Source: Terriglobia bacterium
GTDB taxonomy: Bacteria; Acidobacteriota; Terriglobia; JAJPHL01
DNA: 64,000 bases
Direction: 5' to 3'
Assembly: GCA_021325275.1 (NCBI GenBank)
Contig: JAJPHL010000059.1
Location: forward strand, 62,001 to 126,000
This document shows positions 14,955 through 28,663 of this stretch, piece by piece. The translations under genes and the position numbers were made by a program. Each line of letters begins with the position of its first letter. The first letter of the stretch is position 1. The notes under the pieces are model-generated. The model did not search any database. It had not been told where the DNA came from and saw only the letters and a program-made list of their open reading frames with translations.

Positions 14955-15008
14955 ATCTTTCTCTGATGTCACGGCATCTCATACCAATCATCCGAATGGG
15001 AGGACGAT

Positions 15009-15761
15009 ATGGGCAAACTTGAAGGCAAAGTGGCCGTGGTTACTGGTGCGTCCAAGGGAATTGGCGCTTCCATCGCCGAACATTTGGCAGCGGAAGGCGC
15101 GTCCGTTGTGGTGAACTACGCGAGCAGTAAGAGCGCTGCCGACAGCGTGGTGAAACACATTCAAGAAAAAGGCGGCAAGGCCGTCGCGGTGCAGGCGGAC
15201 GTCGCGAAGTCCGAGGACGTCAAACGACTCTTTAGCGAAACGAAAAAAGCCTACGGGAAAGTGGATGTGCTGATCAACAACGCCGGCGCGTATGAATTTG
15301 TGCCGCTCGAATCGATCACCACGGAACACTTCCACAAGCTTTTCAATCTCAACGTACTCGGACTGCTGCAAAGCACGCAGGAAGCCGTGAAGTTGATGGA
15401 CGGCCGCGGCGGATCGATCGTCAACATCAGCTCGATTGTCGGGCCGATGCCGGTGGGAACGGCGTCGGTTTACAGTGGAAGCAAAGCCGCGGTGGACGCC
15501 ATCACGGTTTCATTGTCGCAGGAACTGGGCCCGCGCAAGATCCGCGTGAATTCACTGAATCCGGGAATGGTGGCGACCGAAGGGCTCTCGAACAGCGGTT
15601 TTAGCGAAAGCGAATTCCGCAAGGTCATCGAGGCGCGCACGCCGCTCGGAAGAATCGCGCAACCGGAGGACATCGCGAAAGCCGCAGTCTTCTTCGCTTC
15701 CGATGATTCCGGATGGGTGACGGGCCAGACGTTGATCGTGGCAGGCGGCGATCGCCAATAA
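15009..15761 (+). CDS. Short-chain dehydrogenase/reductase
   Basis: A 250-residue classical SDR: NAD(P)-binding TGASKGIG near residue 13, NNAG near 89, active-site Ser and YxxxK (YSGSK), and the C-terminal DIAKAAVFFASDDSGWVTGQ region. The sequence is of the FabG/glucose 1-dehydrogenase-like group; the N-terminal VNYASSK pattern suggests NADP preference. The substrate cannot be assigned. GGAGG lies 6 nt before the ATG. It is convergent with the peptide-export operon, with 35 bp between the stops. Confidence 0.93.
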   Translation: MGKLEGKVAVVTGASKGIGASIAEHLAAEGASVVVNYASSKSAADSVVKHIQEKGGKAVAVQADVAKSEDVKRLFSETKKAYGKVDVLINNAGAYEFVPLESITTEHFHKLFNLNVLGLLQSTQEAVKLMDGRGGSIVNISSIVGPMPVGTASVYSGSKAAVDAITVSLSQELGPRKIRVNSLNPGMVATEGLSNSGFSESEFRKVIEARTPLGRIAQPEDIAKAAVFFASDDSGWVTGQTLIVAGGDRQ

Positions 15762-15796
15762 TAAAGATCGCCGCGGGCGGCGACCCGTCCACAAAC

Positions 15797-17902
15797 TTAG
15801 GGATGCGCGATCACCAAAAGTGTCTTAGCGCGAGATAGTACGCAGTCAAGCGCCCGCTGCATCGTTTCCGGATCGAGCGCCGCGAGACTCTCGTCGAGGA
15901 CCACGAGACTGGCGTCCTGAAGCAGCGCACGTGCAATGAAGACCCGGCTGCGCTCGCCTTGCGAAAGTTGCCATCCGGTTTCGCCAACCATTTGGAATAA
16001 TCCGCCGGGCATGCGTTCGAGCAAATCGCCCAGACCCATCTCGCGGCAGATTTCGAGCGCCTCTTGCATTTCCGCTTCGCCGATCGCGCCGCGCCGGCCC
16101 ATCAGCAAATTGAAAAACAGTGGTCCTGTGATCACGTGATTCAAGTGGAATTGCGGCGCTGCGACGATGCGGCGGCGCCAGCCGTCCGCGCCCAACGTGT
16201 GACGATCAAGTCCGCCGGCCAGCAAGAGTCCCGCGCTCGATTGGCGAATTCCGGTGAGCAGCGAGACGAAGGTCGACTTTCCGCCGCCGGAACTGCCGCC
16301 CATCAGCACGCGCTCGCCGGCGGAAATTCGCAGCGAGCAGCGGCGCAACACTGGCTCGTCGCGCGTGGGATAACGGAAAACTAATTCCTGCGCTTCGAGA
16401 GGAACTTCATCGCGCGACGCCGAAGTGGCGACGGCGAACACCGGCGATCCTTTGAGACTGGGACCAATTTCCGCCATCAACGGCGTGAGCTGCTCCCAGG
16501 CGATTCGCGCGTCGACCATCTGCCATGCCGCCGCCGAAAGCCGTTTGAAGGCGCGCTGCGCTAGAAAGATTCCGCCGATGCCGACGGCAAGCGGCGTCAC
16601 GTTTCCTTGTGCCGCCAAGAATGCGGGCGCCATCGCGAGTAGTCCGGCGATGAGCCAACCTTGCGGAATCGCGGAGAGCAGTGCGGCTTCGGCGCGATCG
16701 CGGATGATCGAGGAATCGAGATAGCGGTCGAGTTCCTGATCTTCGTCCTCATGGCGCTGCTCGGGACGCTCTTGCGCGAGCCGGGTCCGATGGCCCACCA
16801 TGCGTTCTACAAGCGAATGCGTCATGTCGAGGCGCAGCGACGTCCAGCGTCGCGCGCGTTTGAGATAACGCATGCAAATCAGCGCGCACACCGCGCACCA
16901 CGCGGCGAGCAGCGCGGTGAGACCCCAGGCGCCCGAGGCAATCAGCACCGCGGCCGCGGCGGAAAGCTCCATCAACGCGATCACGCCGGTGAATCCGCCG
17001 CTCAACACCAGCGTTTCGAGGGAATCCGATTCGATCGCGCGGCCGAGCAATTGTCCCGCGCCTTCCGCCAGCACCGACTCGGGATCGAGTTGCAGCGCGC
17101 CGGCCATCAACCGCTGGCGCAGCCACGATCCCAGCGTCACCGCGACGCGTGCTTGCATGCGAATCGCCGCCATGCGGATCGGCGGCAGCGTCATCAGCAG
17201 CAGAATCCAGGCCCACAACCAGCCGCGATCCAAGCGTCCTTGCAGCGCGGCTTGGCCGATCACCACCCACGACAATAAGTAGATCGCTAAGAACGCCGCG
17301 TGCGCGCCGAGCGCTTTCATCAGGCGCGGGCCTTGTCCGCCCGATGCAGCGAGGCGGCGAAACGGCGCTTCAATCGGAAGGCGCAACATCCAACTGGAGA
17401 TTTTCATGGCGCCGAGTTGTTCCGCCAGCATTGCGCGGCGCGCGGCGACGCGTGCCTTCTGCTCGATGCCCACAGATTCGAGAAACGCTTCAATGCGCTC
17501 GAGCGGTTCGGCCTCGCTCTCGGCGCAAATGGCCGCGCGAATTTCGGAAATCGGCAAGGTGTGCAGTTCGCGATCTGCACCGAGGACGACGCCGCCCGAT
17601 CGCACCATCAGCAGATAGCGCGTGCCCTCAGAATGCGCCACGGGAATCAGCACGATTCGCGATGACGCAATGTACGATTCCAATTCCGCATACGGCGTCT
17701 CTACGCGTTCGGCTTCGATTCCCAGAATTTGCGCCGACGCTTCGATCCAATCGCCGTGGGCCTGCGACGGAAGATGCGGCGGCACGGGCAAATCCTTCGG
17801 CAGCGGATCGAGTCCGCCACGACGCGCGAGAGCGGTGATGGCTTCACCGATGCGCTCGAAGGGCCAGGCGATGACCCATGCGCGATTGGGGGCGCGATTC
17901 AT
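15797..17902 (-). CDS. ABC transporter, membrane/ATP-binding subunit without peptidase (NHLM-type second exporter)
   Basis: A 701-residue half-transporter. The ATG at 17902 overlaps the stop of the upstream exporter (ATGA), which suggests translational coupling. Residues 1-about 240 are soluble and lack any C39 Cys, then five to six transmembrane helices (about 270-490) and an ATPase domain follow: Walker A GSSGGGKST near 540, signature LSQGE, Walker B LVVLDESLAALD, H-loop VIAHP. The protein ends directly after the H-loop, shorter than usual. NHLM-type bacteriocin operons carry such a second ABC protein next to the peptidase-bearing one. It probably forms a heteromeric or paired exporter for the mini-peptides encoded upstream. 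Confidence 0.85.
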   Translation of the reverse strand: MNRAPNRAWVIAWPFERIGEAITALARRGGLDPLPKDLPVPPHLPSQAHGDWIEASAQILGIEAERVETPYAELESYIASSRIVLIPVAHSEGTRYLLMVRSGGVVLGADRELHTLPISEIRAAICAESEAEPLERIEAFLESVGIEQKARVAARRAMLAEQLGAMKISSWMLRLPIEAPFRRLAASGGQGPRLMKALGAHAAFLAIYLLSWVVIGQAALQGRLDRGWLWAWILLLMTLPPIRMAAIRMQARVAVTLGSWLRQRLMAGALQLDPESVLAEGAGQLLGRAIESDSLETLVLSGGFTGVIALMELSAAAAVLIASGAWGLTALLAAWCAVCALICMRYLKRARRWTSLRLDMTHSLVERMVGHRTRLAQERPEQRHEDEDQELDRYLDSSIIRDRAEAALLSAIPQGWLIAGLLAMAPAFLAAQGNVTPLAVGIGGIFLAQRAFKRLSAAAWQMVDARIAWEQLTPLMAEIGPSLKGSPVFAVATSASRDEVPLEAQELVFRYPTRDEPVLRRCSLRISAGERVLMGGSSGGGKSTFVSLLTGIRQSSAGLLLAGGLDRHTLGADGWRRRIVAAPQFHLNHVITGPLFFNLLMGRRGAIGEAEMQEALEICREMGLGDLLERMPGGLFQMVGETGWQLSQGERSRVFIARALLQDASLVVLDESLAALDPETMQRALDCVLSRAKTLLVIAHP

Positions 17903-20532
17903 GGCCGTGACTCCGTTTCCATCAATTGCCCGCCGAGGAGCGAAATGCGCCGCCACTCGGCGTTCTGCCACATATTGCGCGACACTCTTTCTTCGGCCGC
18001 GAGCATTTCCGCATAGCGCGATCCCGCGCGGCGCGCCAACTCGCGCGGTGCGCCGTCTTCGGCCACGCGTCCGTCTTCGATCACCAGCACGCGGTCGAAC
18101 GTCAAGGCATGACTCACGTCGTGCGTGATGCACAAGATCGTGGCAGTACGCCACCACTCGCGGCAACGTTCCAGCAAGCGCGCGCGGCGTTCGCGATCGA
18201 GTCCCCGAAACGGCTCATCGAGAATCGCCAGACGCACGTTGTCGCGCAAAAATGCCCGGCCGAGGCGCAAGCGTTGTCCTTCGCCTCCCGACACACGCGC
18301 GCCGCCTTCGCCGAGCACGGTCTGCATGCCTTCGGGCAAACGTTCCAGGACGCCACGCAGGTCGGCGGCCTCGATTACGTTGGTCACGCCGGCTTCTGCC
18401 CCAGGAGGCGCGCCATAAGCAAGATTCTCGAGCACCGTTTTGTTCCACAGATGAACTTCGGGATTCAGCCAAGCCATTTGGCTGCGCAAGTCCTCGGGCA
18501 TTTCCGAGATCGCGCGGCCGTCAATGCGCATTTCGCCCTCGGCCGGACGATGCCATCCGAGCAGCAAACCGGCCAAGCTCGATTTGCCTGCGCCCGACGG
18601 GCCGACGATGGCCACATGGCTGCCCGGCGCAATTTCCAATTGCAGTTCGCGAAGGATCAAGTGTCCAGCGGCGCGCACGGCAACGTTCTCAAGCGCGATG
18701 GCCATGCCACCCGCGGTTTCCTGGTGAGTGGCGGCGGGCGATGGCCGCGGCATTTCCGCGTGCTCGATGGCCCCCAGCGGCTCGAGCAAACGAAGCGTAA
18801 CGTTGCGGTAGGCGGGATACTGCCACGCGGTCAGCGACAAATCTTGCGCGATGTTGGGAAGGTTCAGCGCCCAATAAACCAGCAGCAACGTAGATCCGCT
18901 TTGCCCGAAGCGCGCGAAGTGATCGAACAGCAGCCAGCCGCACAATCCGAATCCCACGGCGATCTGCCACCCTTCAACACGCGCCACCGCTTCTTGCAGC
19001 GAAAGTCCCGCGCCGGCCCATTCGCGCAGCAACTCGCGATGGGCCTGGCGCATCGCGGGCTGCGCGCCGTGCGTGCGAATGGGAATCATGCCGAGGAGCG
19101 CGTCGAGATAAAAGCGCGTGAGCGCGCCTGCATGTACGCGCAAACGCAAGTCGCGCTCGTTCAGTGCGCGTTGACCGAGTAGCGGCAGCGTGATCGCCGC
19201 AAGACACGCCAGCAACACGATGGGCCAAGCGCGCGGGTCGAGCCAAATGATTCCCGCCGCGGTGAAAAATAATTCAAAAAACGATCGCACCACGCGTCCG
19301 CCCAATTCCGGCAAGTGCCGGATGCGATGCAGGCTGTGACTGCGCTCCGCCATGTCCGACTTCGGACGGCTTTGGAAATAGCGGTCGCCAAGCCGTGGGA
19401 TTTTCGTAAGAAACGCCAGACGCAAGCGATTTTCCAGTTGCCGCCCGAGCCGCAAGATACCGCGCGCCAGCGGCCACTCGATCGCCGGCAGCATCGCGCA
19501 CAAGAAAATCACGGCGGTGTACGCGGCCAGCCGTTGTCCACTCAGTTGCAGTTCGCGGCCGAGGTCCAGCAATCCGCGCAACAACAACGCTTCTACCACC
19601 GTGCCTGCAGCGGCCAGGAGACTCGCGCCGGCGAGAATCGCGGGTGAGAGAAGTCCGTCTTGCTTCAAGAATCCGAAGAGCGCGGACGCCGGACGCAGCG
19701 GACGCTCGGCTAGCGCGGCGGCGAGTTCGGGCGAAAGCTTTTCTTCGCTCGCGGCCGACACGGCGCGGCGTCCCGACACCGAGATGAACACGGCGCCGCG
19801 CAATCGCACACAATCGGGATCGTCGTCCTGCCGGATGGCCCAACATGGCCCTGGCAGCAACGAAGGATCGGCGAGAAAACGGCGGATCGCACCGAGCGAT
19901 TGCTCGCCGGTCTTCAGCGCGCCGGCATCCACGAGTGTTTGGGTTGCGCGAATAGCGGCGTCGAGCGCGCCGAAGGGCAGCCACGTGGGCGCGGCGGCAG
20001 CGGCGTCGGTGAATTCGCGCGCGGCGGTGGCACCGGCGCCCAAATTCGCGAGGCGCTCGTGAAACAACGCGCGCGCCGAGTCCGACGAGGCCCAATCGAG
20101 CCACTGATCTCCGGTCAGCGTCTGCTCGTGCACGAAAACTTCGCGCAGGAATGCGTCGACCGTGGTCCAGCGGCGGCCGGAACCTGGATCCATCACTTGC
20201 AGGAACGGGCCGATGACGCGCCACGCCACCACAAAGTGCGTGGAGCCGTTGGGCATCCGCACCACGATCAACGCCGGCAGCGAATCCGCTTCTTTCAGAA
20301 AAACTTGATCGAGCGGCAGCATGTTTTGCTGCGCTTCCAAACCAAGCCGCTGCGCGATTTCTTCGAGTGTGTCGATCGACGTGCCGTCGACGTCGGTTTG
20401 GCACGCTTCGCGCAAGCGGCCATAGCTGACCGGTACGCGAAACCCTTCGAAGAGACATTTCAGCGCGGCGGGACCACAATCCATCGCCGACGTTTGGATC
20501 ACTTCATACGCGAGCAGAGGTCGGCGAGGCAT
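17899..20532 (-). CDS. C39 peptidase-containing ABC exporter (PCAT, NHLM-type)
   Basis: An 877-residue peptidase-containing exporter. The N-terminal C39 domain has all catalytic residues: Cys19 in MDCGPAALK, His99 in STHFVVAW and Asp115 in VMDPGSG, so leader cleavage after a double-Gly-type site is expected. About 150 residues of unusual soluble sequence (about 140-290) separate it from the helices. The ATPase domain carries Walker A VGPSGAGKSS near residue 650, signature VSGGE, Walker B LAILDEPFRGLD and H-loop CITHD. In PCATs the precursor leader is cut on the cytoplasmic face and the core is exported. It lies 35 bp after the HlyD gene, in the operon headed by ten NHNE mini-genes. Confidence 0.93.
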   Translation of the reverse strand: MPRRPLLAYEVIQTSAMDCGPAALKCLFEGFRVPVSYGRLREACQTDVDGTSIDTLEEIAQRLGLEAQQNMLPLDQVFLKEADSLPALIVVRMPNGSTHFVVAWRVIGPFLQVMDPGSGRRWTTVDAFLREVFVHEQTLTGDQWLDWASSDSARALFHERLANLGAGATAAREFTDAAAAAPTWLPFGALDAAIRATQTLVDAGALKTGEQSLGAIRRFLADPSLLPGPCWAIRQDDDPDCVRLRGAVFISVSGRRAVSAASEEKLSPELAAALAERPLRPASALFGFLKQDGLLSPAILAGASLLAAAGTVVEALLLRGLLDLGRELQLSGQRLAAYTAVIFLCAMLPAIEWPLARGILRLGRQLENRLRLAFLTKIPRLGDRYFQSRPKSDMAERSHSLHRIRHLPELGGRVVRSFFELFFTAAGIIWLDPRAWPIVLLACLAAITLPLLGQRALNERDLRLRVHAGALTRFYLDALLGMIPIRTHGAQPAMRQAHRELLREWAGAGLSLQEAVARVEGWQIAVGFGLCGWLLFDHFARFGQSGSTLLLVYWALNLPNIAQDLSLTAWQYPAYRNVTLRLLEPLGAIEHAEMPRPSPAATHQETAGGMAIALENVAVRAAGHLILRELQLEIAPGSHVAIVGPSGAGKSSLAGLLLGWHRPAEGEMRIDGRAISEMPEDLRSQMAWLNPEVHLWNKTVLENLAYGAPPGAEAGVTNVIEAADLRGVLERLPEGMQTVLGEGGARVSGGEGQRLRLGRAFLRDNVRLAILDEPFRGLDRERRARLLERCREWWRTATILCITHDVSHALTFDRVLVIEDGRVAEDGAPRELARRAGSRYAEMLAAEERVSRNMWQNAEWRRISLLGGQLMETESRP

Positions 20533-20567
20533 GAAGGATTAGGATAACGTAAGGCGAACGCGTTACA

Positions 20568-21788
20568 TCACTGCGAAGCTTGATTGGCGGGGCTTTGATT
20601 GACAGGACCTTGATTGGGACGCGGCGCCGCGCTGATTCGTCCGGCGAGACGCAAGGTGAGAACGGCGGGCGAAACGCGCTCCACTTCTACTTCCACCGAG
20701 CCGGGCAGCCCATGCTGCAACGGAATGGTCGACGATGACGCGTCCACCGACATTTCCACGCGCACCGTTCCGTTGCGCACTTCGCCGGCCACGCGTTCCA
20801 CACGCACCGGCAGACTGCCGTATTGCATCCACGGGAATCCTTGGAGCCGCAAATGTCCTTCTTGTCCTGGGCGGATTCTTCCGAACGCCGACGCCGGCGC
20901 GTATTCCGCAACCAAACGCAGTTTGCCGCTGGGCACAATCGCCGCCAGGCGATCGCCTTCCTTGACGATCGCGCCCGGGCGGATCGCGGGAACGTCGGCC
21001 AGTTCGCCGGCCACCGGCGCGCGAATCACGCGACGCTCGATTTCCAGTTGTAGGCGCGCCAGCATCGCGGCGGTGGAATCGATATCGCCTTGCATTCGCG
21101 CGATCTCGCCGCGCAGACGTTGCAAGCGCGTCTGGCGCTCGGCGTCGCGCGTGGTTTGCTCGCGCTCGGCGCGCGCCATCGCCAGTCGCAAGCTGTCGAC
21201 GGCGGCGCGGCGGCTCTGCGCGTCGGATTCTCCCTGTGCGACCTCGCGTTCGGCGACCAATCCTTCTTTGTTCAAAATTTGCAGACGTCCGACGTCTTCC
21301 TGCGCAAACTTGGCGGGAGCTTCGGCTTGGCGGACTTGCGCGCGCATCACTTCGAGCTGAGCGTTCAACGCTTGGCGCTCGTCGCGTCCGGCCTGTTCGT
21401 TGGCCGCGATCTCGGCTTCTAACGGCTGAATCTGAGGACGAAGCGCCGCCAAGCGCGCTTCCTGCTCGCGCCGCTGCAACGTTTGCGTGTCGGATTCAAC
21501 GCGCGCCAGTTCGTCGCCTTCACGAACCTCGCGGCCCAGGGCGAGATTCGTGGAAATCAAGCGGCCTTCCACCGGCGATTGCACGGAGTATCCCGTGCGT
21601 CCATTTTCCACGCGCGCCGATTCGGTGACTTCGTACAGGGAAACGCGCGCCAGGAAAAACCACGCCAGCCACGCCGCGAACAACAAACTGGCCGGAAGAA
21701 GTCCGGCGACGGATCGCGCTAGGCGGTCGGCCTTCAAAGCGTGACTGGTGCGGCCAAAGCGTGCAGGCATCAAACACGAGCCTAGCAC
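20568..21788 (-). CDS. HlyD-type membrane fusion protein of the peptide exporter
   Basis: A 406-residue periplasmic adaptor. One transmembrane helix (about residues 28-48, LLPASLLFAAWLAWFFL), a split lipoyl domain (YSVQSPVEGRLISTN ... RRVIRAPVAGELADVP), an intervening coiled coil (about 95-215) and a C-terminal beta-barrel are visible. It would link the inner-membrane exporter to an outer-membrane channel, which is not encoded here. The start could also be the ATG at 21770 (MPARFGRT). A strong hairpin (21795-21830) separates it from the last mini-gene, so its expression may be lower than that of the precursors. Confidence 0.88.
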   Translation of the reverse strand: MLGSCLMPARFGRTSHALKADRLARSVAGLLPASLLFAAWLAWFFLARVSLYEVTESARVENGRTGYSVQSPVEGRLISTNLALGREVREGDELARVESDTQTLQRREQEARLAALRPQIQPLEAEIAANEQAGRDERQALNAQLEVMRAQVRQAEAPAKFAQEDVGRLQILNKEGLVAEREVAQGESDAQSRRAAVDSLRLAMARAEREQTTRDAERQTRLQRLRGEIARMQGDIDSTAAMLARLQLEIERRVIRAPVAGELADVPAIRPGAIVKEGDRLAAIVPSGKLRLVAEYAPASAFGRIRPGQEGHLRLQGFPWMQYGSLPVRVERVAGEVRNGTVRVEMSVDASSSTIPLQHGLPGSVEVEVERVSPAVLTLRLAGRISAAPRPNQGPVNQSPANQASQ

Positions 21789-21794
21789 ACGGAA

Positions 21795-21830
21795 GCCGCG
21801 CCCGCACTGCGAAGGCTCAGCGGGCGCGGC
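21795..21830 (-). terminator. GC-rich hairpin between the peptide genes and the exporter genes
   Basis: An 11-bp perfect inverted repeat (GCCGCGCCCGC, 14-nt loop, GCGGGCGCGGC). There is no T-run after it on the minus strand, so it may be a leaky attenuator or an mRNA-protecting structure that keeps precursor mRNA above exporter mRNA. Confidence 0.6.
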
Positions 21831-21842
21831 ATCCTTCCGGAA

Positions 21843-21926
21843 CTAGCGGATTTGCTCGTTGTGGTTCGAGGTCAACACACCGGCGCGAACGCGGGACTTT
21901 ACGGCGATCTTCTTCATGGCTTTCAT
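21843..21926 (-). CDS. NHNE mini-precursor 10 (short type)
   Basis: A 27-residue peptide that starts MKAMKKIAVKSRVRAG and ends VLTSNHNEQIR. AAGGAG lies 6 nt before the ATG at 21926. It is the most divergent copy: the Gly-Gly step is Ala-Gly and Arg replaces Lys before it, yet NHNEQ is intact, which argues for selection on the C-terminal motif. If cleaved after Ala-Gly the product would be 11 residues. An internal ATG at 21917 could also be used. Confidence 0.8.
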   Translation of the reverse strand: MKAMKKIAVKSRVRAGVLTSNHNEQIR

Positions 21927-21971
21927 GGCATCTCCTTTTCTTCTTGTGGCTTGGCACGAAAGTGCCGAAAA

Positions 21972-21990
21972 CCTCTGAGCATTTCAGAGG
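21972..21990 (-). other. Intercistronic stem-loop between mini-precursors 9 and 10
   Basis: CCTCTGA, a 5-nt loop and TCAGAGG form a 7-bp stem. A second small hairpin (GGCAC-GAAA-GTGCC) lies beside it at about 21953-21966. Both sit in the 134-bp gap between two precursor genes and may stabilise the mRNA segments. Confidence 0.45.
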
Positions 21991-22060
21991 CTTCCAATCA
22001 GAAAAGGCGCAGAAAGGGGCGAAACCCTATCACGGAGGACGCCCCGTGCCGCGGTCTTGG

Positions 22061-22144
22061 TTAGCGAACCTGCTCGTTGTGATTCCCGGGCAGGCCGCCC
22101 GCCTTCACCTTCGACTTCGTATTGATCTTTTTCTTTGCTGCCAT
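22061..22144 (-). CDS. NHNE mini-precursor 9 (short type)
   Basis: A 27-residue peptide: MAAKKKINTKSKVKAGG, then LPGNHNEQVR. GGGAGG precedes the ATG at 22144. Cleavage after Gly-Gly would leave a 10-residue product, the shortest of the set. It shares the MAAKKKI start with precursor 8, which defines the short subfamily. Confidence 0.85.
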   Translation of the reverse strand: MAAKKKINTKSKVKAGGLPGNHNEQVR

Positions 22145-22182
22145 GACCGATGCCTCCCTGGATGTTTTCAACTACGCGGAAC

Positions 22183-22212
22183 GGGCGGAGAGACTCGTGG
22201 ACGCATCCGCCC
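22183..22212 (-). other. Intercistronic stem-loop between mini-precursors 8 and 9
   Basis: GGGCGGA (22183-22189) pairs with TCCGCCC (22206-22212) across a 16-nt loop. It resembles the other GC-rich stems in the downstream half of the array. Confidence 0.5.
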
Positions 22213-22232
22213 TTTCCTGCCTGAAGCAAACG

Positions 22233-22316
22233 CTAGCGGGCCTGCTCGTTGTGGTTCAGCTGCAGAGCGCCACCCTTCACTTTGGACTTCATCGCGATTT
22301 TCTTCTTGGCTGCCAT
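22233..22316 (-). CDS. NHNE mini-precursor 8 (short type)
   Basis: A 27-residue peptide: MAAKKKIAMKSKVKGG, then ALQLNHNEQAR. A purine-rich AGAGAG stretch precedes the ATG at 22316. It has the KxKVKGG step of the long type but lacks KPKLKVKT. The predicted core after Gly-Gly is 11 residues. Confidence 0.85.
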   Translation of the reverse strand: MAAKKKIAMKSKVKGGALQLNHNEQAR

Positions 22317-22402
22317 GATTCACTCTCTCTTTCCGGGGCGGTTCTGCCGCCTCCACTTGACCATGCGCAACGCGAGGTCGAAATCGCTCAAGAAACACAA
22401 AA

Positions 22403-22425
22403 GGCGGAGCCTGATGGGCCCCGCC
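22403..22425 (-). other. Intercistronic stem-loop between mini-precursors 7 and 8
   Basis: GGCGG (22403-22407) pairs with CCGCC (22421-22425), with additional pairing of GCC and GGC inside. It marks the boundary between the tightly packed long-type genes and the more widely spaced short-type genes. Confidence 0.45.
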
Positions 22426-22439
22426 CCTTGACTCGAAGG

Positions 22440-22538
22440 CTAGCGAAGCTGCTCGTTGTGGTTGAGCTTCACGCCATCGTTGCCGCCGGCTTTCACCTGC
22501 GTCCGAACCTTCAGTTTGGGTTTCGCCGTCTTCTTCAT
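22440..22538 (-). CDS. NHNE mini-precursor 7 (transition type)
   Basis: A 32-residue peptide: MKKTAKPKLKVRTQVKAGG, then NDGVKLNHNEQLR. Its leader is of the long type, but the tail NHNEQLR is that of the short type, so it bridges the two groups. AGGGGGAT lies just before the ATG at 22538. Confidence 0.9.
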   Translation of the reverse strand: MKKTAKPKLKVRTQVKAGGNDGVKLNHNEQLR

Positions 22539-22548
22539 GGATCCCCCT

Positions 22549-22653
22549 TTAGAGAATGCGCTCGTTGTGGTTCAGGGTCCGGCCGTAGTTGTCGCCACCG
22601 CCGCCTTTGACCTGGGTCTTCACTTTCAATTTCGGCTTTCCTGCTTTTTTCAT
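22549..22653 (-). CDS. NHNE mini-precursor 6 (long type)
   Basis: A 34-residue peptide: MKKAGKPKLKVKTQVKGG, then GGDNYGRTLNHNERIL. AGGAGAT precedes the ATG at 22653. The core shares NYG and LNHNER with precursors 3 to 5. Confidence 0.9.
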   Translation of the reverse strand: MKKAGKPKLKVKTQVKGGGGDNYGRTLNHNERIL

Positions 22654-22663
22654 GGGCATCTCC

Positions 22664-22765
22664 TTAGACCCTGCGCTCGTTGTGGTTCAGTTGGACTCCG
22701 TAGTTGGGACCGCCGCCCTTGACCTGCGTCTTCACCTTCAGTTTGGGTTTGGTCGTTTTCTTCAT
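22664..22765 (-). CDS. NHNE mini-precursor 5 (long type)
   Basis: A 33-residue peptide: MKKTTKPKLKVKTQVKGG, then GPNYGVQLNHNERRV. AGGGGGAT precedes the ATG at 22765. The core differs from that of precursor 3 at only a few positions, showing recent duplication. Confidence 0.9.
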   Translation of the reverse strand: MKKTTKPKLKVKTQVKGGGPNYGVQLNHNERRV

Positions 22766-22776
22766 GGATCCCCCTT

Positions 22777-22881
22777 TTAGAGCACGCGTTCGTTGTGGTT
22801 CAGGCTTCGGCCGTAGTTGTCACTGCCGCCGCCCTTCAGCTGCGTCTTCACTTTCAATTTCGGTTTGGCCGTTTTTTTCAT
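22777..22881 (-). CDS. NHNE mini-precursor 4 (long type)
   Basis: A 34-residue peptide: MKKTAKPKLKVKTQLKGG, then GSDNYGRSLNHNERVL. AAGGGGAT precedes the ATG at 22881. The core pairs with that of precursor 6 (DNYGR followed by NHNER). Confidence 0.9.
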   Translation of the reverse strand: MKKTAKPKLKVKTQLKGGGSDNYGRSLNHNERVL

Positions 22882-22890
22882 GGAATCCCC

Positions 22891-22992
22891 TTAGAGCATG
22901 CGCTCGTTATGATTCAGGCTGACGCCGTAGTTGGGGCCGCCGCCCTTGACCGTGGTCTTGACTTTCAACTTGGGTTTAGTCGTCTTCTTCAT
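22891..22992 (-). CDS. NHNE mini-precursor 3 (long type)
   Basis: A 33-residue peptide: MKKTTKPKLKVKTTVKGG, then GPNYGVSLNHNERML. AGAAGGA precedes the ATG at 22992. The codons for NHNE differ from the neighbours (AAT CAT AAC GAG), so the motif is kept despite synonymous change. Confidence 0.9.
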   Translation of the reverse strand: MKKTTKPKLKVKTTVKGGGPNYGVSLNHNERML

Positions 22993-23001
22993 AGAGTCCT
23001 T

Positions 23002-23106
23002 CTAGAGCATCCGCTCGTTGTGGTTGAGGGAGAAGCCGAAGTTCGGAGGATTGCCGCCCTTCACCTGCGTCTTCACCTTGAGCTTGGGCTTGGGTGTCTT
23101 TTTCAT
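23002..23106 (-). CDS. NHNE mini-precursor 2 (long type)
   Basis: A 34-residue peptide: MKKTPKPKLKVKTQVKGG, then NPPNFGFSLNHNERML. Only a few bases separate its ATG at 23106 from the stop of precursor 1 and no good ribosome-binding site is visible, so translational coupling is likely. Its core resembles the truncated remnant at 23319-23357. Confidence 0.88.
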   Translation of the reverse strand: MKKTPKPKLKVKTQVKGGNPPNFGFSLNHNERML

Positions 23107-23111
23107 GGTGG

Positions 23112-23309
23112 TTAGAGCGCGCGCTCGTTGTGGTTGGTGGTCAGCGCCGGCAACCCGCCGCCGCCCTTGACCGTGGTCTTGACCTTCAACTTGGGCTTGG
23201 TTGTCTTCTTCAGCATTTGCTCGTTGTGGTTGAAGGTCAGCGCGGGCTGCCCGCCGCCGCCCTTGACCTGTGTCTTCACTTTCAACTTCGGCTTCGGAGT
23301 CTTTTTCAT
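23112..23309 (-). CDS. NHNE mini-precursor 1, a fused tandem of two units
   Basis: A 65-residue peptide made of two units with no stop between them. The first unit runs MKKTPKPKLKVKTQVKGG, GGQPALTFNHNEQ; after ML the second runs KKTTKPKLKVKT, TVKGG, GGLPALTTNHNERAL. AGGAGA lies 6 nt before the ATG at 23309. An internal ATG at 23216 (the Met of the ML junction) could restart translation. The exporter might therefore receive one dimer or two monomers. It is the first gene after the predicted promoter. Confidence 0.85.
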   Translation of the reverse strand: MKKTPKPKLKVKTQVKGGGGQPALTFNHNEQMLKKTTKPKLKVKTTVKGGGGLPALTTNHNERAL

Positions 23310-23318
23310 GGGATTCTC

Positions 23319-23357
23319 CTCGAGCATTCGCTCGTTGAATTTGTCCGGGGGATTCCC
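23319..23357 (-). pseudogene. 3' remnant of an additional NHNE unit
   Basis: Directly upstream of precursor 1, the minus strand reads GNPPDKFNERML followed by GAG where the other units have the TAG stop. This matches the end of precursor 2 (GGNPPNFG...NHNERML) in order and spacing. The unit has lost its 5' part and one His-Asn, and its former stop is mutated. It overlaps the likely transcription start. Confidence 0.6.
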
Positions 23358-23388
23358 AAAAGTTACCTCTGGCGGTGATCGATGTCAA
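23356..23388 (-). promoter_or_regulatory. Predicted promoter of the NHNE peptide operon with an operator-like site on its -10 box
   Basis: On the minus strand TTGACA (23388-23383), a perfect -35, is followed after 17 bp by TAACTT (23365-23360), which keeps the three most conserved -10 bases. Transcription would start near 23352, about 40 nt before the ATG at 23309. The -10 lies inside GGTAACTTTTGG, a near copy of the motif repeated at 23411-23442 but in the opposite orientation. Confidence 0.6.
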
Positions 23389-23410
23389 GCGGGAATCCGC
23401 TTTCGCGAAT

Positions 23411-23442
23411 AGTACTTTTGGAAAACGGATGGTACTTTTGGA
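23411..23442 (+). promoter_or_regulatory. Direct repeat (two copies, 20-bp spacing) upstream of the peptide operon promoter
   Basis: AGTACTTTTGGA (23411-23422) and GGTACTTTTGGA (23431-23442) are spaced by exactly 20 bp, close to two helical turns. They lie 23 to 54 bp upstream of the -35 box. With the third, inverted copy on the -10 box they form a set of likely regulator binding sites. No regulator gene is adjacent. Confidence 0.55.
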
Positions 23443-23543
23443 CACTGGGACAAATGCGGCGCCGGACAACGACGCAGCGCCGCAATCGGTGGGAAACGGC
23501 CGCGCTTCCGAATCCCGATCGCGACACTGCGCCAACCCGTCGA

Positions 23544-26500
23544 CTAATTCCCCTTGATCGAAATATTTCCCGGCGATGTCGCAATGCCACCGACGGTCAG
23601 CACCACCGGGTAGTCGCCGGTGGTCCACGCCGAGCCATCAGCCTTCGTGGCGGGCAGCGTGATATTGGCTTGCGCCAGTCCCACCGATCCCGGCGTAAGC
23701 CCCGCGAACACAACAGGCGCGGCCGTGCCGCCGATCGTCGCGGTGACGGTCGCGGTCACCTTGGCCGGCGGATTTCCCGGACTCGCGGCGCCGGTGGTTA
23801 CCGCTTGGTCCACCGCGCCTTGACCCGTGAAGTACACGACGGCGATTCCGTTCGGTACGAGCGGTTGAGTCGGGGAGTTGGCGGAAAAATCCTGATTTTG
23901 CGCGGCGAGATGCGACGTGCCGCCGATCAGGAAGAGTCCCGGCGCGGTGGCGACGATCTGCACCGTCGACTGCGCGACCGGGCCGCCCGCGCTGGTCAAC
24001 AATAGTTGTTGCGAGCCGGTGGACAATCCATACGGAATCTGCGCGTTGATCTGCGTGGCGCCGACGTAGAGCAATGGCGCGGCCACGCCGCCGACCGTGA
24101 GGCTCACGTCGCCCAAGTACGTCGGCAATGGAACGGCCGTGGCTCCCGCCGCGGTCGTGCTGCCCATCTGCGTGCCGTAGATCGTGAACAACGATCCCGG
24201 CGCCAAGCCGCCTTGCGCCGAGCTGGCCGCGTTCACCGACGCGCCAATGGAAGGTCCAGGCGCGCCGGAAACGCCGGTCAGGTTGATGATGTGCGGCGAT
24301 CCCACGCCGCCATCGTTGATCGTCAGCACGCCGGTGCGCGTTCCCGTGGTCGATGGCGCGAACGCCACTTGAATCATGCAACTCGCGCCCGCTGCCAGCG
24401 ACGTTCCGCAACTGTTGGTCTGTGCGAAGTCGCCGGTAACGGTGATGCTCGAAATCGACAACGCCGCGCCGCCGGTATTGGTCACGGATACCGATTGCGG
24501 GAAGCTGAACGATCCCTGCGATTGCGGCGGGAAACTCACCGTACCGGTGGAAAGGGTCAGCGAGGGAGGCGCCGCGACGGCCTGCACGGCGATATTCGCC
24601 GCGTCCATCACGTTGGTGTAGTTCTGGCTCGTGGCGGTCAGTTTGAATTGGAGCACCGTGTCCGTCGAAACTGTCGAAGGAGCGGTCACTTTCACTTGCA
24701 CCGATTTGTTGGCGCCGGCCAGAAGACTGAGAGTCGAAGGCAGCGCGCTCCCATCGACGGTCAGGCCGGAATCGGCGGTCAACGCCAGGTTATAGCTATC
24801 GGCCTTGAGTCCGCGATTCGTCACGACGATCGTCACGGTCGCGGAACCTCCCGGCGGAAGTTGCACGCCGTTGGGGTACGACAGGCGCACCGCGGTGAAG
24901 ACAGGGATCGCGTCGGCTTGGTCGCGAGTGATTTCGGCATCACCCGTCACCGGAACGTCTACGTCGATGCCCTTTCCAGAGAGCGATCCGCCGGAGAATA
25001 CGAGTTTGTCCCAATCGGTTTGGCTGGCGCTCATCGGGCCGACGTACGCTGTGCCGAGGGTATTGTCTAAACCGTCGATGTCAACCGACTGCAGCACGTT
25101 CGCCGCTACCGTTCCGCAACTCCAGTCGATCCCGAAGCGGGCGTCCTCGATCGCTTTGTTCGGCGTGCCGTTGTTCTTGGCCAATGGCGCGTTGGGGCAG
25201 AACCACGACGTTCCAATCTTGGGGAAACCCGAGGGGACGCTGAGTCCAAGCTGAGGGTTCAACTGGGAGGTGTCGAGTTGCGGCAGCGCCCAGCGCGAAT
25301 AGTCATAGGAAGGGCCACCGTCCGCGGGCAAGCCGCTCATCTGGAACGAATAGTTCATGATGCTCAAGTAGTTCGGCTTGTAGTTGAATCCTTCGTTGCC
25401 GCCGTGCTGCAGCCCCAAATTGTGGCCCAGTTCATGCATCAGCGTGCCGGCCTGCTCTTGAATGGTCCCAACGACAGTCGGGAATCCACCAAGCGTGATC
25501 ATGAGTTTCGACGCGCCATCGCTGAAGGTTGCAGTGTTCGCCGACAGTCCGCTGCTGGTGGTGGTGCTGTTTTGCAGGTGCGAAGAAATCACATGGTGGA
25601 AAATCATCGCGCGTCCACTGGCGTTGAAGTTCGCCGACATCTTGTCGAACAATACCCAGGTGTCCGGCGAGGGGGACTTGGAGTTCGGCGGGTCCGACAT
25701 CATGTATGTCGCTTCGTTGTTCGACAAAAGCGCCGCCTGCGTGTAGGGTTTGCCGTTGGCGTCGAGCGTACCCCACGTCTTGGTCAGTGTCATCGGGCAT
25801 TTCGGTCCGCAATCGATGTGCATGTTGATGCCCTTTTGGCCGTCCACCGGCGCCTGTTTGAACGAATTGACGAGAATCAAGGCTGCAAAGGGATCGAGCT
25901 GATGCGAGTGGTACGGCAACCCCGTGGTCGCATTGCCTGGGAACGACGTCCAATCGACTTGTATGAAAATGTCCTTGGTATTGGGATCCGCGCCCATGCC
26001 CGGTAAGTCGATGAAGATGTCCTTGCCATTGGGGCGCATGTACACGCCGTGCAGCTCCCAATCGTCGCAAAGGCCATCGCCGTCAGCGTCAGGACAAGCG
26101 GTCTTATCCGACTTCGGTCCGCCATAGCCATTGGCGGTCAACGTCGGCGGATTGGCGGCGTTGCTGTTGAACGTGATCGTCACGTTAAGCGTGCCGGTAA
26201 TCGTGGGATGGAACGTGAGGACTGCTTGACACGACTGCTGCGGCGTGAGAGTCAGCGGACAGTTTCCGAAACTGAAGTCGTAATTGACGAGGTCGGAGAC
26301 GTTCGCCGAAGTCAGGTTCAACAGAGAAGTGCCGCTGTTGGTGATCGTAACCGTCTTCGGCCCCGTGCTGGTGCCGATCACGAAGCCGCCGAGATTGAAA
26401 AGTTGCGGCTGCAACGTGAAGGTGGGCGGCGCCGACGCCGTGCTGGTTCCCGTGACTGCAATATTCACGTTGGCGCCGGCGTTGGACGCGATGACGATAT

Positions 26501-28493
26501 TGGTATGGAAGGTTCCGATGTCGGAGGGGATCCATTTCACCGAAAGGGTGCAAGAGTTGCCGGTCGTGATCGTCGCCCCGAGACAAGACGTGAGATCGAA
26601 GGAAAGCCCGATGTTCGGGGATTGCGTGATGTTGCTGATCGTCAAGGCCGCGCCGCCAGTGTTCGAGATCGTCACGGTTTGCGAGGAACTAGCGTTGCCG
26701 ACAGAGGAGTCGAACGCCAGCACATTCGGACTGACCGAAATAATCGGCGTGTTCGGCAACTGCGCCGTCAAGCTGACGGGAATCGTTGTCGTCGCGGGCG
26801 ACGCGTTCGTGGTGATCGTGATATTCGCGTTCGAACTTCCGGCCACGCTCGGCGTGTACGTCACGCCCAGCGTGCAGGAATTACCCGCTTGAATCGTCTG
26901 ACCCAAGCACGAAGTCAAATTCAGCGAGAGTCCGGAGTTCGCTGTGGCCTGAATATTCGAAATCGTCAGGGCCGCGCCGCCGGTGTTGCTGAGCTTCACG
27001 TTTTGCACCTGGCTTGTCGTTCCCACGGGCGTGGAAAAGCTCAGACTCGTGGGACTCACCGTCAGGATCGGAATGTTGGGGGGATTGGCTACGAGCACCA
27101 CCTGAAGCGTTACCGTGCTCGGCGTGGCGGTGGTCGTGATCGTGATGTTGACCAGTTGGCTGGCGACCTGCGACGGCGAATACGTCACGCCGAACTTGCA
27201 GTTTTGTCCGCCTTGCAGTGTCGTACCGAGGCAGTTCGTCAGGTCGAGAGAGATTCCGCTGCCCGATGGCGCCTGAATGTTGTTGACCGTGATCGACGAT
27301 GTGGTGTTGTTGGTGATCGTGACCTGTTGCGACGCGCTGGTGACCCCCACCGTGGTGGTGATCGTGAGACTGCTGGGCGACAGCGTAATCGGCGGCGGGG
27401 TTGGCTTCACGACACGGATACGATTGTTGCCGCTGTCGGCGATGTAAAGATCGGTCCCGGTGCCGGACAAGTCGTTGGCCACCGCGATGGCGCGCGGAGA
27501 ACTCAATTCCGCCGCTGTTGGCGAGCCGCCGTCGCCTGAAAATCCTGCCGTGCCGCTGCCCGCGATGGTGGTGACGTTGTTGCCGCCGTCGATCATGCGG
27601 ATTCGATTGTTGCCGAGGTCGGCGACATAAATATTGAGGTTCGCATCGGTCCAAATGTTGCGCGGCGAATTGAATTGCGCCGATCCGACCTTCCCGCCGT
27701 CGCCCGAGAATCCGGCCGTCGATCCGCCGAGCGTCGCGACCGCTCCCGAGGACGCGTCGGCTACGCGGATGCGATTGTTGAGGGTGTCGGAGATGTAAAG
27801 CTGGTTGAACGCCGGGCTGTACGCCACTCCCACGGGAGTGTTGAGCGTGGCCGTCGATCCGTCCCCGACGAGCGTCTTGATGGTGCCCGCTTGCAAATCG
27901 ATTTCGCGAATTCGATTGTTTCCGGAGTCGGCGACATAAAGGTATTGCGCGCCGGCCGAAGTGAAGACGTCGTTCGTGGAATCGGTGAATTGCATGCCCA
28001 GGCCGTTGGGCGCGTTGATTTGCGCCGCGGTCGCCGGACCGTTGTCGCCGGAGAATCCCGCGGTGCCGGTTCCCGCCAGCGTGACGATCGTGCCGTCCGG
28101 CTTAACTCTGCGGATTCGCTGATTGGCCGTGTCGGAGATGTAGACGCTGCCATCGGTATCATCGTAGGCGACACCTGACGGCCGATTCAGTTGCGCCGAT
28201 GTAGCGGGTCCGCCGTCACCCGAAAACCCTGCCGTGCCGTTGCCCGCGACCGGCTTGATGATCCCGTTCTTGATCATGCGGACGGTGCTGTTGCCCGTGT
28301 CGCAGAAATAGATGACCCCGTTTGCCGTTACCGTGATCGCCGTCGGCAGGTTGAGCTGCGCCGACGTGGCCGATCCGTTGTCGCCGGAGTTTCCGGCCGT
28401 GCCGGTCCCCGCGGACGTGCTGATAGTAAGGGTTTGCGCCGAAAGCGACAGGATAAACAGTGTACTGGCAAGCAATTGAGTAATGGTTTTCAT
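23544..28493 (-). CDS. Giant secreted NHL-repeat / metzincin protein with Solibacter C-terminal domain
   Basis: About 1649 residues from the ATG at 28493 (signal peptide ending LSAQ). Order: six to seven NHL-type propeller blades (about 20-370, repeated FSGDGG, ADSGNNRIR), four to five ASH/choice-of-anchor Ig-like domains (about 375-790), a Ca-binding DADGDGLCDDWE turn, then a metalloprotease domain. The latter has HELGHNLGLQH, the metzincin HExxHxxGxxH zinc site, and a plausible Met-turn (LSIMNYSFQ). Further Ig-like domains and a TIGR03437-like C-terminal domain (APGSLFTIYG...) follow. It is probably a cell-surface or secreted protease. It lies upstream of and codirected with the NHNE operon. 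Confidence 0.85.
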   Translation of the reverse strand: MKTITQLLASTLFILSLSAQTLTISTSAGTGTAGNSGDNGSATSAQLNLPTAITVTANGVIYFCDTGNSTVRMIKNGIIKPVAGNGTAGFSGDGGPATSAQLNRPSGVAYDDTDGSVYISDTANQRIRRVKPDGTIVTLAGTGTAGFSGDNGPATAAQINAPNGLGMQFTDSTNDVFTSAGAQYLYVADSGNNRIREIDLQAGTIKTLVGDGSTATLNTPVGVAYSPAFNQLYISDTLNNRIRVADASSGAVATLGGSTAGFSGDGGKVGSAQFNSPRNIWTDANLNIYVADLGNNRIRMIDGGNNVTTIAGSGTAGFSGDGGSPTAAELSSPRAIAVANDLSGTGTDLYIADSGNNRIRVVKPTPPPITLSPSSLTITTTVGVTSASQQVTITNNTTSSITVNNIQAPSGSGISLDLTNCLGTTLQGGQNCKFGVTYSPSQVASQLVNITITTTATPSTVTLQVVLVANPPNIPILTVSPTSLSFSTPVGTTSQVQNVKLSNTGGAALTISNIQATANSGLSLNLTSCLGQTIQAGNSCTLGVTYTPSVAGSSNANITITTNASPATTTIPVSLTAQLPNTPIISVSPNVLAFDSSVGNASSSQTVTISNTGGAALTISNITQSPNIGLSFDLTSCLGATITTGNSCTLSVKWIPSDIGTFHTNIVIASNAGANVNIAVTGTSTASAPPTFTLQPQLFNLGGFVIGTSTGPKTVTITNSGTSLLNLTSANVSDLVNYDFSFGNCPLTLTPQQSCQAVLTFHPTITGTLNVTITFNSNAANPPTLTANGYGGPKSDKTACPDADGDGLCDDWELHGVYMRPNGKDIFIDLPGMGADPNTKDIFIQVDWTSFPGNATTGLPYHSHQLDPFAALILVNSFKQAPVDGQKGINMHIDCGPKCPMTLTKTWGTLDANGKPYTQAALLSNNEATYMMSDPPNSKSPSPDTWVLFDKMSANFNASGRAMIFHHVISSHLQNSTTTSSGLSANTATFSDGASKLMITLGGFPTVVGTIQEQAGTLMHELGHNLGLQHGGNEGFNYKPNYLSIMNYSFQMSGLPADGGPSYDYSRWALPQLDTSQLNPQLGLSVPSGFPKIGTSWFCPNAPLAKNNGTPNKAIEDARFGIDWSCGTVAANVLQSVDIDGLDNTLGTAYVGPMSASQTDWDKLVFSGGSLSGKGIDVDVPVTGDAEITRDQADAIPVFTAVRLSYPNGVQLPPGGSATVTIVVTNRGLKADSYNLALTADSGLTVDGSALPSTLSLLAGANKSVQVKVTAPSTVSTDTVLQFKLTATSQNYTNVMDAANIAVQAVAAPPSLTLSTGTVSFPPQSQGSFSFPQSVSVTNTGGAALSISSITVTGDFAQTNSCGTSLAAGASCMIQVAFAPSTTGTRTGVLTINDGGVGSPHIINLTGVSGAPGPSIGASVNAASSAQGGLAPGSLFTIYGTQMGSTTAAGATAVPLPTYLGDVSLTVGGVAAPLLYVGATQINAQIPYGLSTGSQQLLLTSAGGPVAQSTVQIVATAPGLFLIGGTSHLAAQNQDFSANSPTQPLVPNGIAVVYFTGQGAVDQAVTTGAASPGNPPAKVTATVTATIGGTAAPVVFAGLTPGSVGLAQANITLPATKADGSAWTTGDYPVVLTVGGIATSPGNISIKGN

Positions 28494-28663
28494 AAGCCCC
28501 TCTTTGGTTCTCATACCCTATAGGCGGAAGGGACAAAAGGGAACCCTCAACTTTTTTAGGACCACGCGGGGTCGCGCGAGAGACCCCAGCGGCCGCGGGA
28601 ACACACGCTCGCGTGGTACAATGTGGACTCAAGCAAGCTAAATCGCGTACGGGGTACGGAATC

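What the first reader, a model, noticed from the sequence alone, without database searches (positions are those of the whole stretch)
15797..23442. Candidate new peptide-export system: ten NHNE mini-precursors feeding a C39-ABC/HlyD/ABC exporter
Seen in the sequence: ten tandem, same-strand genes of 27-65 codons, nearly all with their own ribosome-binding site (precursor 2 appears coupled), share a Lys-rich leader, a Gly-Gly or Ala-Gly step and an invariant Asn-His-Asn-Glu, while the residues between vary. They are followed by an HlyD adaptor, a peptidase-exporter with Cys19/His99/Asp115 intact, and a second ABC protein overlapping it by 4 bp. Known: NHLM-type bacteriocin operons carry this trio of exporter genes and C39 domains cut after double-Gly with a hydrophobic residue at -4 (here Val). 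Inference: the leaders are removed after Gly-Gly and cores of roughly 10-17 residues are exported. The precursors are much shorter than nitrile-hydratase-like leaders, and I know of no described family with this pattern.
Basis: partly seen in the sequence, partly recalled or inferred. Interest (0 to 1): 0.95.

Follow-up and report, generated by a model that had tools for sequence, protein, structure and literature searches.

The report
Tiny peptide precursors with dedicated exporter
A bacterium, likely an acidobacterium, carries eleven near-copies of a tiny peptide gene beside an exporter that is predicted to trim and secrete the peptides, and over two thousand database proteins match the same repeat, so this is likely an unnamed family of secreted bacterial peptides.

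Summary
Ten minus-strand ORFs at 21843-23309 carry eleven units: a Lys-rich leader, a Gly-Gly or Ala-Gly step, a variable stretch and invariant Asn-His-Asn-Glu. HlyD, C39-ABC and a second ABC gene follow. Between copies the leader is constrained (dN/dS 0.06), NHNE has only synonymous changes, and the stretch before it drifts (0.9-1.1): a precursor-like pattern. In related genomes the leader recurs in 15-38 aa genes and in polyproteins with up to 16 units, with NHN[QET], WG[AST]-like and other cores. Exporter and precursors co-occur: 21 of 27 precursor genomes hold the exporter, against 15 of 210 others. Nineteen of 39 exporter loci hold a leader-bearing gene on the same strand. Elsewhere in these genomes precursors sit beside ECF sigma factors and Ser/Thr kinases more often than expected; the window has neither. 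The NCBIfam and Pfam scans gave the unit no convincing family, and the three exporter proteins miss the NHLP-system cut-offs. I read it as a new variant of the C39 peptide-export kind with a short, basic, mostly Ala-Gly leader.

The parts
23112..23309 (-). Precursor gene with two fused units (copy 1 at 23220-23309, copy 2 at 23112-23219), 65 aa
   Evidence: AGGAGA 5 bases before the ATG
23002..23106 (-). Precursor copy 3, core about NPPNFGFSLNHNERML, likely translationally coupled
22891..22992 (-). Precursor copy 4
22777..22881 (-). Precursor copy 5
22664..22765 (-). Precursor copy 6
22549..22653 (-). Precursor copy 7 (a start at 22659 is also possible)
22440..22538 (-). Precursor copy 8 (Ala-Gly step)
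22233..22316 (-). Precursor copy 9, 27 aa
22061..22144 (-). Precursor copy 10, 27 aa (Ala-Gly step)
21843..21926 (-). Precursor copy 11, 27 aa (Ala-Gly step)
22398..22430 (-). Terminator-like hairpin (14 pairs) after copy 8; may separate the array into two transcripts (inferred)
   Evidence: 7 such sites found in the region against a mean of 5.0 (sd 2.3) in shuffles, so not above chance as a set
20568..21788 (-). HlyD-type membrane fusion protein (likely start ATG at 21770)
   Evidence: PF13437 58.2 bits against cut-off 22.2
17899..20532 (-). C39 peptidase-ABC exporter, 877 aa, Cys19/His99/Asp115
   Evidence: PF03412 63.7 bits against 22, PF00005 81.2 against 25
15797..17902 (-). Second ABC exporter protein, 701 aa, N-terminal domain weakly C39-like but without the Cys
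   Evidence: PF00005 62.4 bits against 25

Best explanation
The array encodes eleven precursor units with a conserved Lys-rich leader, which the adjacent C39 peptidase-ABC/HlyD/ABC exporter is predicted to cut after the Gly-Gly or Ala-Gly step and to secrete as short peptides, likely used as extracellular signals. Shown here: the units, their selection pattern, the intact catalytic residues, genome-level co-occurrence and gene-level linkage of leader-bearing genes with this exporter, and linkage of the wider family to Ser/Thr kinases and ECF sigma factors in relatives. Inferred: cleavage after (G/A)G, export, that the core alone is the product, and the signalling role. In relatives, polyproteins with tandem units would be cut at each Ala-Gly, which would multiply the yield.
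For: Selection pattern of a precursor family. Catalytic triad invariant in 33 aligned sequences and aligned with PCAT1. Co-occurrence in 237 genomes: exporter in 21 of 27 precursor genomes and 15 of 210 others, p=1.9e-15; at E up to 0.01, 15 of 18, p=1.7e-11; by genus 13 of 15 against 3 of 61, p=3.5e-10. Leader-bearing genes at 19 of 39 exporter loci. One leader with unrelated cores, the mark of a recognition tag. Gly at -1 and Val at -4 as in C39 substrates. ECF sigma near 17 of 41 precursor clusters (0.88 expected), kinase near 17 of 41 (2.2 expected).
Against: No cleavage, export or expression was observed. The leader lacks the hydrophobic -7, and most relatives have Ala at -2, where published sites are GG, GA or GS. 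Twenty of 39 exporter loci show no leader-bearing gene on the same strand, and HlyD was not detected at 7 of 39. Six of 27 precursor genomes lack the exporter. Most precursor clusters lie away from the exporter: 7 of 41 within 4 kb, and 24 of 41 have no ECF sigma and 24 of 41 no kinase there. The window has no kinase, ECF sigma, FHA-sigma54 or TPR gene at E up to 1e-8. Eleven different cores in one genome are many for a signal.
Confidence: 0.65

Rival explanations
1. The exported peptides are antagonistic (bacteriocin-like) cocktails rather than signals; cleavage and export are the same, and the kinase/ECF genes only control production.
For: Hypervariable cores and many copies per genome. The trio resembles bacteriocin exporters.
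Against: No immunity-like gene between array and exporter. Some cores are only 5-6 residues long.
Confidence: 0.3
2. The units are secreted structural material: strand-turn-strand repeats that assemble in the matrix or biofilm, cut once or not at all.
For: Spacing between NHN motifs is mostly 19-25 residues in 133 proteins, with alternating Lys/Val and a Gly turn; small GG-motif proteins of a C39 exporter serve biofilm in Synechococcus (PMC4997328, passages). The likeness to amyloid repeats such as curli is recalled, not tested.
Against: Single-unit genes of 15-23 aa with their own ribosome-binding sites and cores unrelated to the repeat.
Confidence: 0.15
3. It is an ordinary member of the NHLP (NHLM) bacteriocin system.
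For: Same trio of genes, HlyD, C39-ABC and ABC (PMC2887384, passages).
Against: 172.7 against 853.3 bits (TIGR03796), 112.3 against 709.4 (TIGR03797), 48 against 156.2 (TIGR03794); no NHLP or Nif11 leader match in the four precursor queries. NHLP and Nif11 leaders are long and rich in acidic residues near the site.
Confidence: 0.04
4. The peptides stay in the cell as kinase substrates or docking peptides, and the exporter link is incidental.
For: Ser or Thr at -6 between Lys residues in 73 of 73 selected units (the pattern allowed Thr, Ser, Val or Pro there) and in 74% of 344 loosely picked ones; kinases near 17 of 41 clusters.
Against: Co-occurrence with the exporter and 19 of 39 linked loci; no kinase near the window's array.
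Confidence: 0.06

Closest known systems
NHLP/Nif11 (NHLM) precursor and export system (TIGR03793, 03794, 03796, 03797, 03798; PMC2887384, passages)
   Same: HlyD, C39-ABC and second ABC trio; several precursors per genome with conserved leader and variable core
   Different: All three exporter proteins far below the NHLP cut-offs; leader here is basic and about 10-17 residues instead of long and acid-rich near the site; no modification enzyme recognised in the window's operon
PCAT / C39 double-glycine exporters (PCAT1, LahT, ComA; PMC10885120, passages)
   Same: C39 domain with the triad; Gly at -1, hydrophobic residue at -4
   Different: Ala at -2 in most relatives, Lys at -7, leader as short as 10 residues, tandem-unit polyproteins in relatives
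EbfG1-4 / PteB of Synechococcus elongatus (PMC4997328, passages)
   Same: Several small GG-motif proteins served by a C39 exporter, with a role other than killing
   Different: EbfG precursors are 9-10 kDa; no sequence comparison was made here
Kinase-activated ECF sigma factors such as PknS-EcfK (PMC13147305, start of abstract in listing)
   Same: Ser/Thr kinase beside an ECF sigma gene, as at many precursor loci of relatives
   Different: No peptide precursor in what I saw of that work; not present near the window's array

Membership tests
NHLP (NHLM) system | Exporter proteins reach the TIGR03796, 03797 and 03794 cut-offs | tested here: not met
   172.7/853.3, 112.3/709.4 and 48/156.2 bits
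NHLP (NHLM) system | Nitrile-hydratase- or Nif11-like leader (TIGR03793, 03798) | tested here: not met
   No NCBIfam family at E up to 1 for four window queries holding 5 of the 11 units; five relatives' polyproteins gave no such family either
NHLP (NHLM) system | HlyD + C39-ABC + ABC gene set | tested here: met
C39 peptidase-exporter (PCAT) | C39 domain with Cys/His/Asp fused to ABC ATPase | tested here: met
   PF03412 and PF00005 above cut-off; triad invariant in 33 aligned sequences and aligned with PCAT1
C39 peptidase-exporter (PCAT) | ABC transmembrane domain | tested here: inconclusive
   PF00664 16.4 bits against 28 in the C39 protein and no match in the second ABC protein; some close relatives carry PF00664; structure prediction off
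C39 peptidase-exporter (PCAT) | Substrate leader with GG/GA/GS and hydrophobics at -4, -7, -12 | tested here: not met
   -4 met in 11 of 11 window copies and Gly-Gly in 8 of 11; -7 is Lys in 8 and Lys or Arg-flanked basic in the rest, and relatives mostly have Ala at -2
C39 peptidase-exporter (PCAT) | Cleavage and export of the precursor | not testable with these tools
   Needs biochemistry
RiPP with modification enzyme | A modification enzyme gene beside the precursor | tested here: not met
   None in the stretch from array to exporter; the upstream neighbour is an NHL/HYDIN-Ig protein and the downstream one reads as a short-chain dehydrogenase (not scanned). Enzymes elsewhere in the genome were not sought

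The most novel reading that the evidence does not exclude
A peptide secretion and signalling system of a new kind: a ten-residue K-x-K-[ST]-x-V-K-A-G tag, phosphorylated at its Ser/Thr by a neighbouring Ser/Thr kinase, gates cleavage and export by the C39 trio, and the released short cores report back through the kinase and ECF sigma factor. Arrays and polyproteins of tandem units set the dose.
Probability: 0.1. Interest if true: 0.95.

Novelty: new variant of a known kind. Interest (0 to 1): 0.8.

Why it matters
Many of these genes are shorter than common gene callers report (recalled, not tested) and the models searched do not cover them, so a large set of likely secreted peptides has no name: one profile search matched 2,172 of 7,979 scored proteins at E up to 0.01, and none of the 120 listed had a Pfam domain. 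To my knowledge the leader is among the shortest proposed for a C39 exporter, and it departs from the published rules for such substrates, which makes recognition directly testable. The link to kinase and ECF sigma genes would tie peptide secretion to bacterial Ser/Thr phosphosignalling.

Tried and rejected
Searches that led nowhere: A1 (the eleven window copies) found only the own genome among 396 phylum genomes at E up to 0.01; among 61 genomes including the own, 12 matched at E up to 1, and the only other one below 0.01 was G434 at 0.008, part of a 180 aa frame, read as chance. Plasmid tblastn with two precursors: no match. Phylum-wide A4 search: the own genome and one other of 247 at E up to 0.001, so outside family f3 the unit looks rare in what was searched. 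PADLOC: ATPase, kinase and TPR background only. Rfam, 15000-24500: none at gathering score. Sigma-54 pattern in six loci and beside the window array: one match, in L158, not pursued. No sigma-70-like promoter in 20400-23700. Upstream scans of 19 exporter loci without a strict leader match gave leader-bearing ORFs in three. Literature: ten searches; five typical unit or core strings occur in no paper of the library. That covers open-licence papers only, so an earlier description elsewhere is not excluded.

Rejected: NHLP membership. Chance ORFs (44 distinct leader-bearing peptides of up to 60 aa in 1.11 Mb of 117 fetched loci, 40 of them with a ribosome-binding-site match, against 0 in 3.33 Mb of order-2 Markov sequence; partly circular because many of those loci were fetched with the same motif). 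An upstream regulatory leader peptide: eleven copies and polyproteins speak against it.

Full report
Observation. Six-frame search finds eleven NHNE copies, all on the minus strand, in ten ORFs; the first ORF (23309 to 23112) holds two fused units. Nine of ten start codons have an AGGAG-like site; copy 3 seems coupled to the stop 5 bases before it. HlyD (20568-21788), C39-ABC (17899-20532) and a second ABC gene (15797-17902) follow, the last two with an ATGA overlap. Pfam gives HlyD_3, Peptidase_C39 and ABC_tran above their cut-offs; the ABC membrane domain is below its cut-off in the C39 protein and unmatched in the second ABC protein.

Selection. Pairwise Nei-Gojobori counts give dN/dS 0.063 for the last 13 leader codons (copies 1-8) and 0.20 over all eleven; NHNE shows no amino-acid change while synonymous codons differ (dS 1.04 and 0.88); the five codons before NHNE give 0.90 (copies 1-8) and 1.08 (all). 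A constrained leader and motif around a drifting stretch is what a precursor family shows. dS near 1 and few codons make the ratios rough.

Relatives of the exporter. A protein search with residues 1-600 of the C39-ABC gave 5,128 proteins at E up to 1e-20 among the 7,997 candidates scored. In 399 genomes of the class, 17 including the own one hold it; in 237 genomes of one family (f3, the family of G641), 36 do. The three full-length relatives with names are acidobacterial, so the unnamed own genome is likely acidobacterial. Thirty-nine such loci were examined: every C39 locus except the own, one not fetched (G766), one unrelated ATPase hit (L028) and one duplicate (L027 equals L047). HlyD was detected in 32 of the 39; it was missed in L047, L053, L155, L156, L160, L163 and L168, and L027/L047 has a shortened one. 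The triad is invariant in 33 aligned sequences and lines up with PCAT1. The second ABC protein has an N-terminal domain weakly similar to C39, without the Cys (85% probability over 62 columns); its membrane part showed no similarity to that of the first at profile level.

Relatives of the precursors. The exporter loci revealed genes of 15-38 aa with the same leader. A profile of ten units (A2) matched 27 of 237 family genomes at E up to 0.1 and 18 at E up to 0.01. Over 237 genomes up to about 24 chance matches are expected at E 0.1, so the stricter figures are given too. Many hits are polyproteins: the G512 frame has 16 units and stands upstream of the exporter; others have 8-14. Among 73 distinct NHN units picked by a pattern that fixes Gly at -1 and restricts -6 to Thr, Ser, Val or Pro, -2 is Ala in 67, -4 Val in 56, -6 Thr or Ser in 73, and the gap from Gly to NHN is 4 or 5 residues in 68. 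Of 56 distinct leader-bearing peptides 23 lack NHN; 14 of these end in a Trp core such as RAVWGA and the rest have other cores of 5-28 residues; 22 of 23 have a ribosome-binding-site match by a loose test.

Spread. A profile of eight precursors (A3) matched 2,172 of 7,979 scored proteins at E up to 0.01; the 120 listed have no Pfam domain, and the names given are 'hypothetical protein' but for one 'CxxC motif-containing protein' and one uninformative entry. An earlier search with one 270 aa polyprotein gave 14. Outside family f3 the unit is rare in the genomes searched: own genome plus one of 247 by A4, own only of 396 by A1. The one other, G063, is outside the class and has the leader MKVKSNVKAG with an unrelated core.

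Linkage with the exporter. Of 27 precursor genomes 21 hold the C39 exporter, against 15 of 210 without precursors (Fisher p=1.9e-15); at E up to 0.01, 15 of 18 (p=1.7e-11). By genus 13 of 15 against 3 of 61 (p=3.5e-10). Relatedness is only partly removed by counting genera. Of the 39 exporter loci, 14 hold a leader-bearing ORF with a ribosome-binding site on the same strand between 7.5 kb upstream and 9 kb downstream of the C39 start. G880 and G859 and G769, G843 and G824 bring this to 19; G662 has one on the other strand. Twenty have none on the same strand; two of these have under 500 bp of upstream sequence.

Linkage with signalling genes. For 41 precursor clusters in 18 genomes (A2, E up to 0.01), an ECF sigma lies within 4 kb in 17 (0.88 expected) and a Ser/Thr kinase in 17 (2.2 expected); the exporter lies within 4 kb in 7. 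In 24 of 41 clusters there is no ECF sigma and in 24 of 41 no kinase. Clusters in one genome are not independent (12 of 41 in G788), so the printed tail probabilities overstate. A TPR protein recurs near precursors and in G512 sits between polyprotein and HlyD. WG-type genes in G787, G858 and G662 adjoin an FHA-GAF-sigma54 activator. Around the 39 exporter loci, 12 have a kinase and 7 an ECF sigma within 7 kb (no expectation computed). The window has none of these at E up to 1e-8.

Mechanism. Precursors are likely recognised by their short basic leader, cut by the C39 domain after (G/A)G and exported through the trio. This is inferred from homology, Gly at -1, Val at -4 and the linkage above. 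Published C39 sites are GG, GA or GS with hydrophobics at -4, -7 and -12 (PMC10885120, passages); here -7 is mostly Lys and most relatives have Ala at -2, so recognition would differ. I favour a signalling role because of the kinase/ECF linkage in relatives, the very short Trp cores and the repeated units, but antagonism is a serious rival and a matrix role is possible.

Known systems. The nearest by gene set is the NHLP system (PMC2887384, passages), whose cut-offs the trio misses by far. EbfG/PteB shows that several small GG-motif proteins can be exported by a C39 transporter in another phylum for a purpose other than killing (PMC4997328, passages). Precursor families of cyanobacterial C39 clusters were also looked at (PMC3140520, passages); the string NHN does not occur in its main text. 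Five typical strings of this family occur in no paper of the library.

Noticed in passing
L161 (G843), ORF read from 7336 on the strand opposite to its exporter: A 52 aa ORF with an acidic segment (VEIDAQELEAIA) before LSVRSRLRAG and a Cys-rich tail; P0209 ends in a similar acidic segment plus leader. They may link this leader to classical acidic double-glycine leaders.
   Followed up: partly
L174 (Piscinibacter gummiphilus plasmid NZ_CP136338.1), 7356-7529: A betaproteobacterial plasmid has a C39-ABC 37% identical over 85% of the query, an ABC gene, MoeB, a DUF692 protein and a 57 aa peptide containing LKAKVNVKLG, reminiscent of the leader; weak likeness only.
   Followed up: partly
L196/L176 (G063), 89 aa frame at L176 position 1524, minus strand: Leader MKVKSNVKAG with an acidic 28-residue core in a genome outside the class; a kinase and an ECF sigma gene lie on the same contig stretch.
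   Followed up: partly
window 23544-28514 (-): A 1656 aa protein with NHL repeats and HYDIN/ASH Ig-like domains lies just upstream of the array on the same strand; relation to the array unknown.
   Followed up: no
L161 position about -4371 from its C39 start; P0243: Some units carry a Pro-rich FNPQP[DE]PPG core after the leader, a further core type.
   Followed up: no
L092 587-1825 (-): The 16-unit polyprotein scores just above the Pfam cut-off of PF03460 (26.4 against 24 bits) with no single stretch passing, likely a repeat artefact that could mislead annotation.
   Followed up: no
L053 and L160 (G591, G834), upstream of C39-ABC: Instead of a detected HlyD, these exporter loci have a histidine kinase gene, and in L053 a PPIC/SurA-type rotamase gene, upstream.
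   Followed up: no
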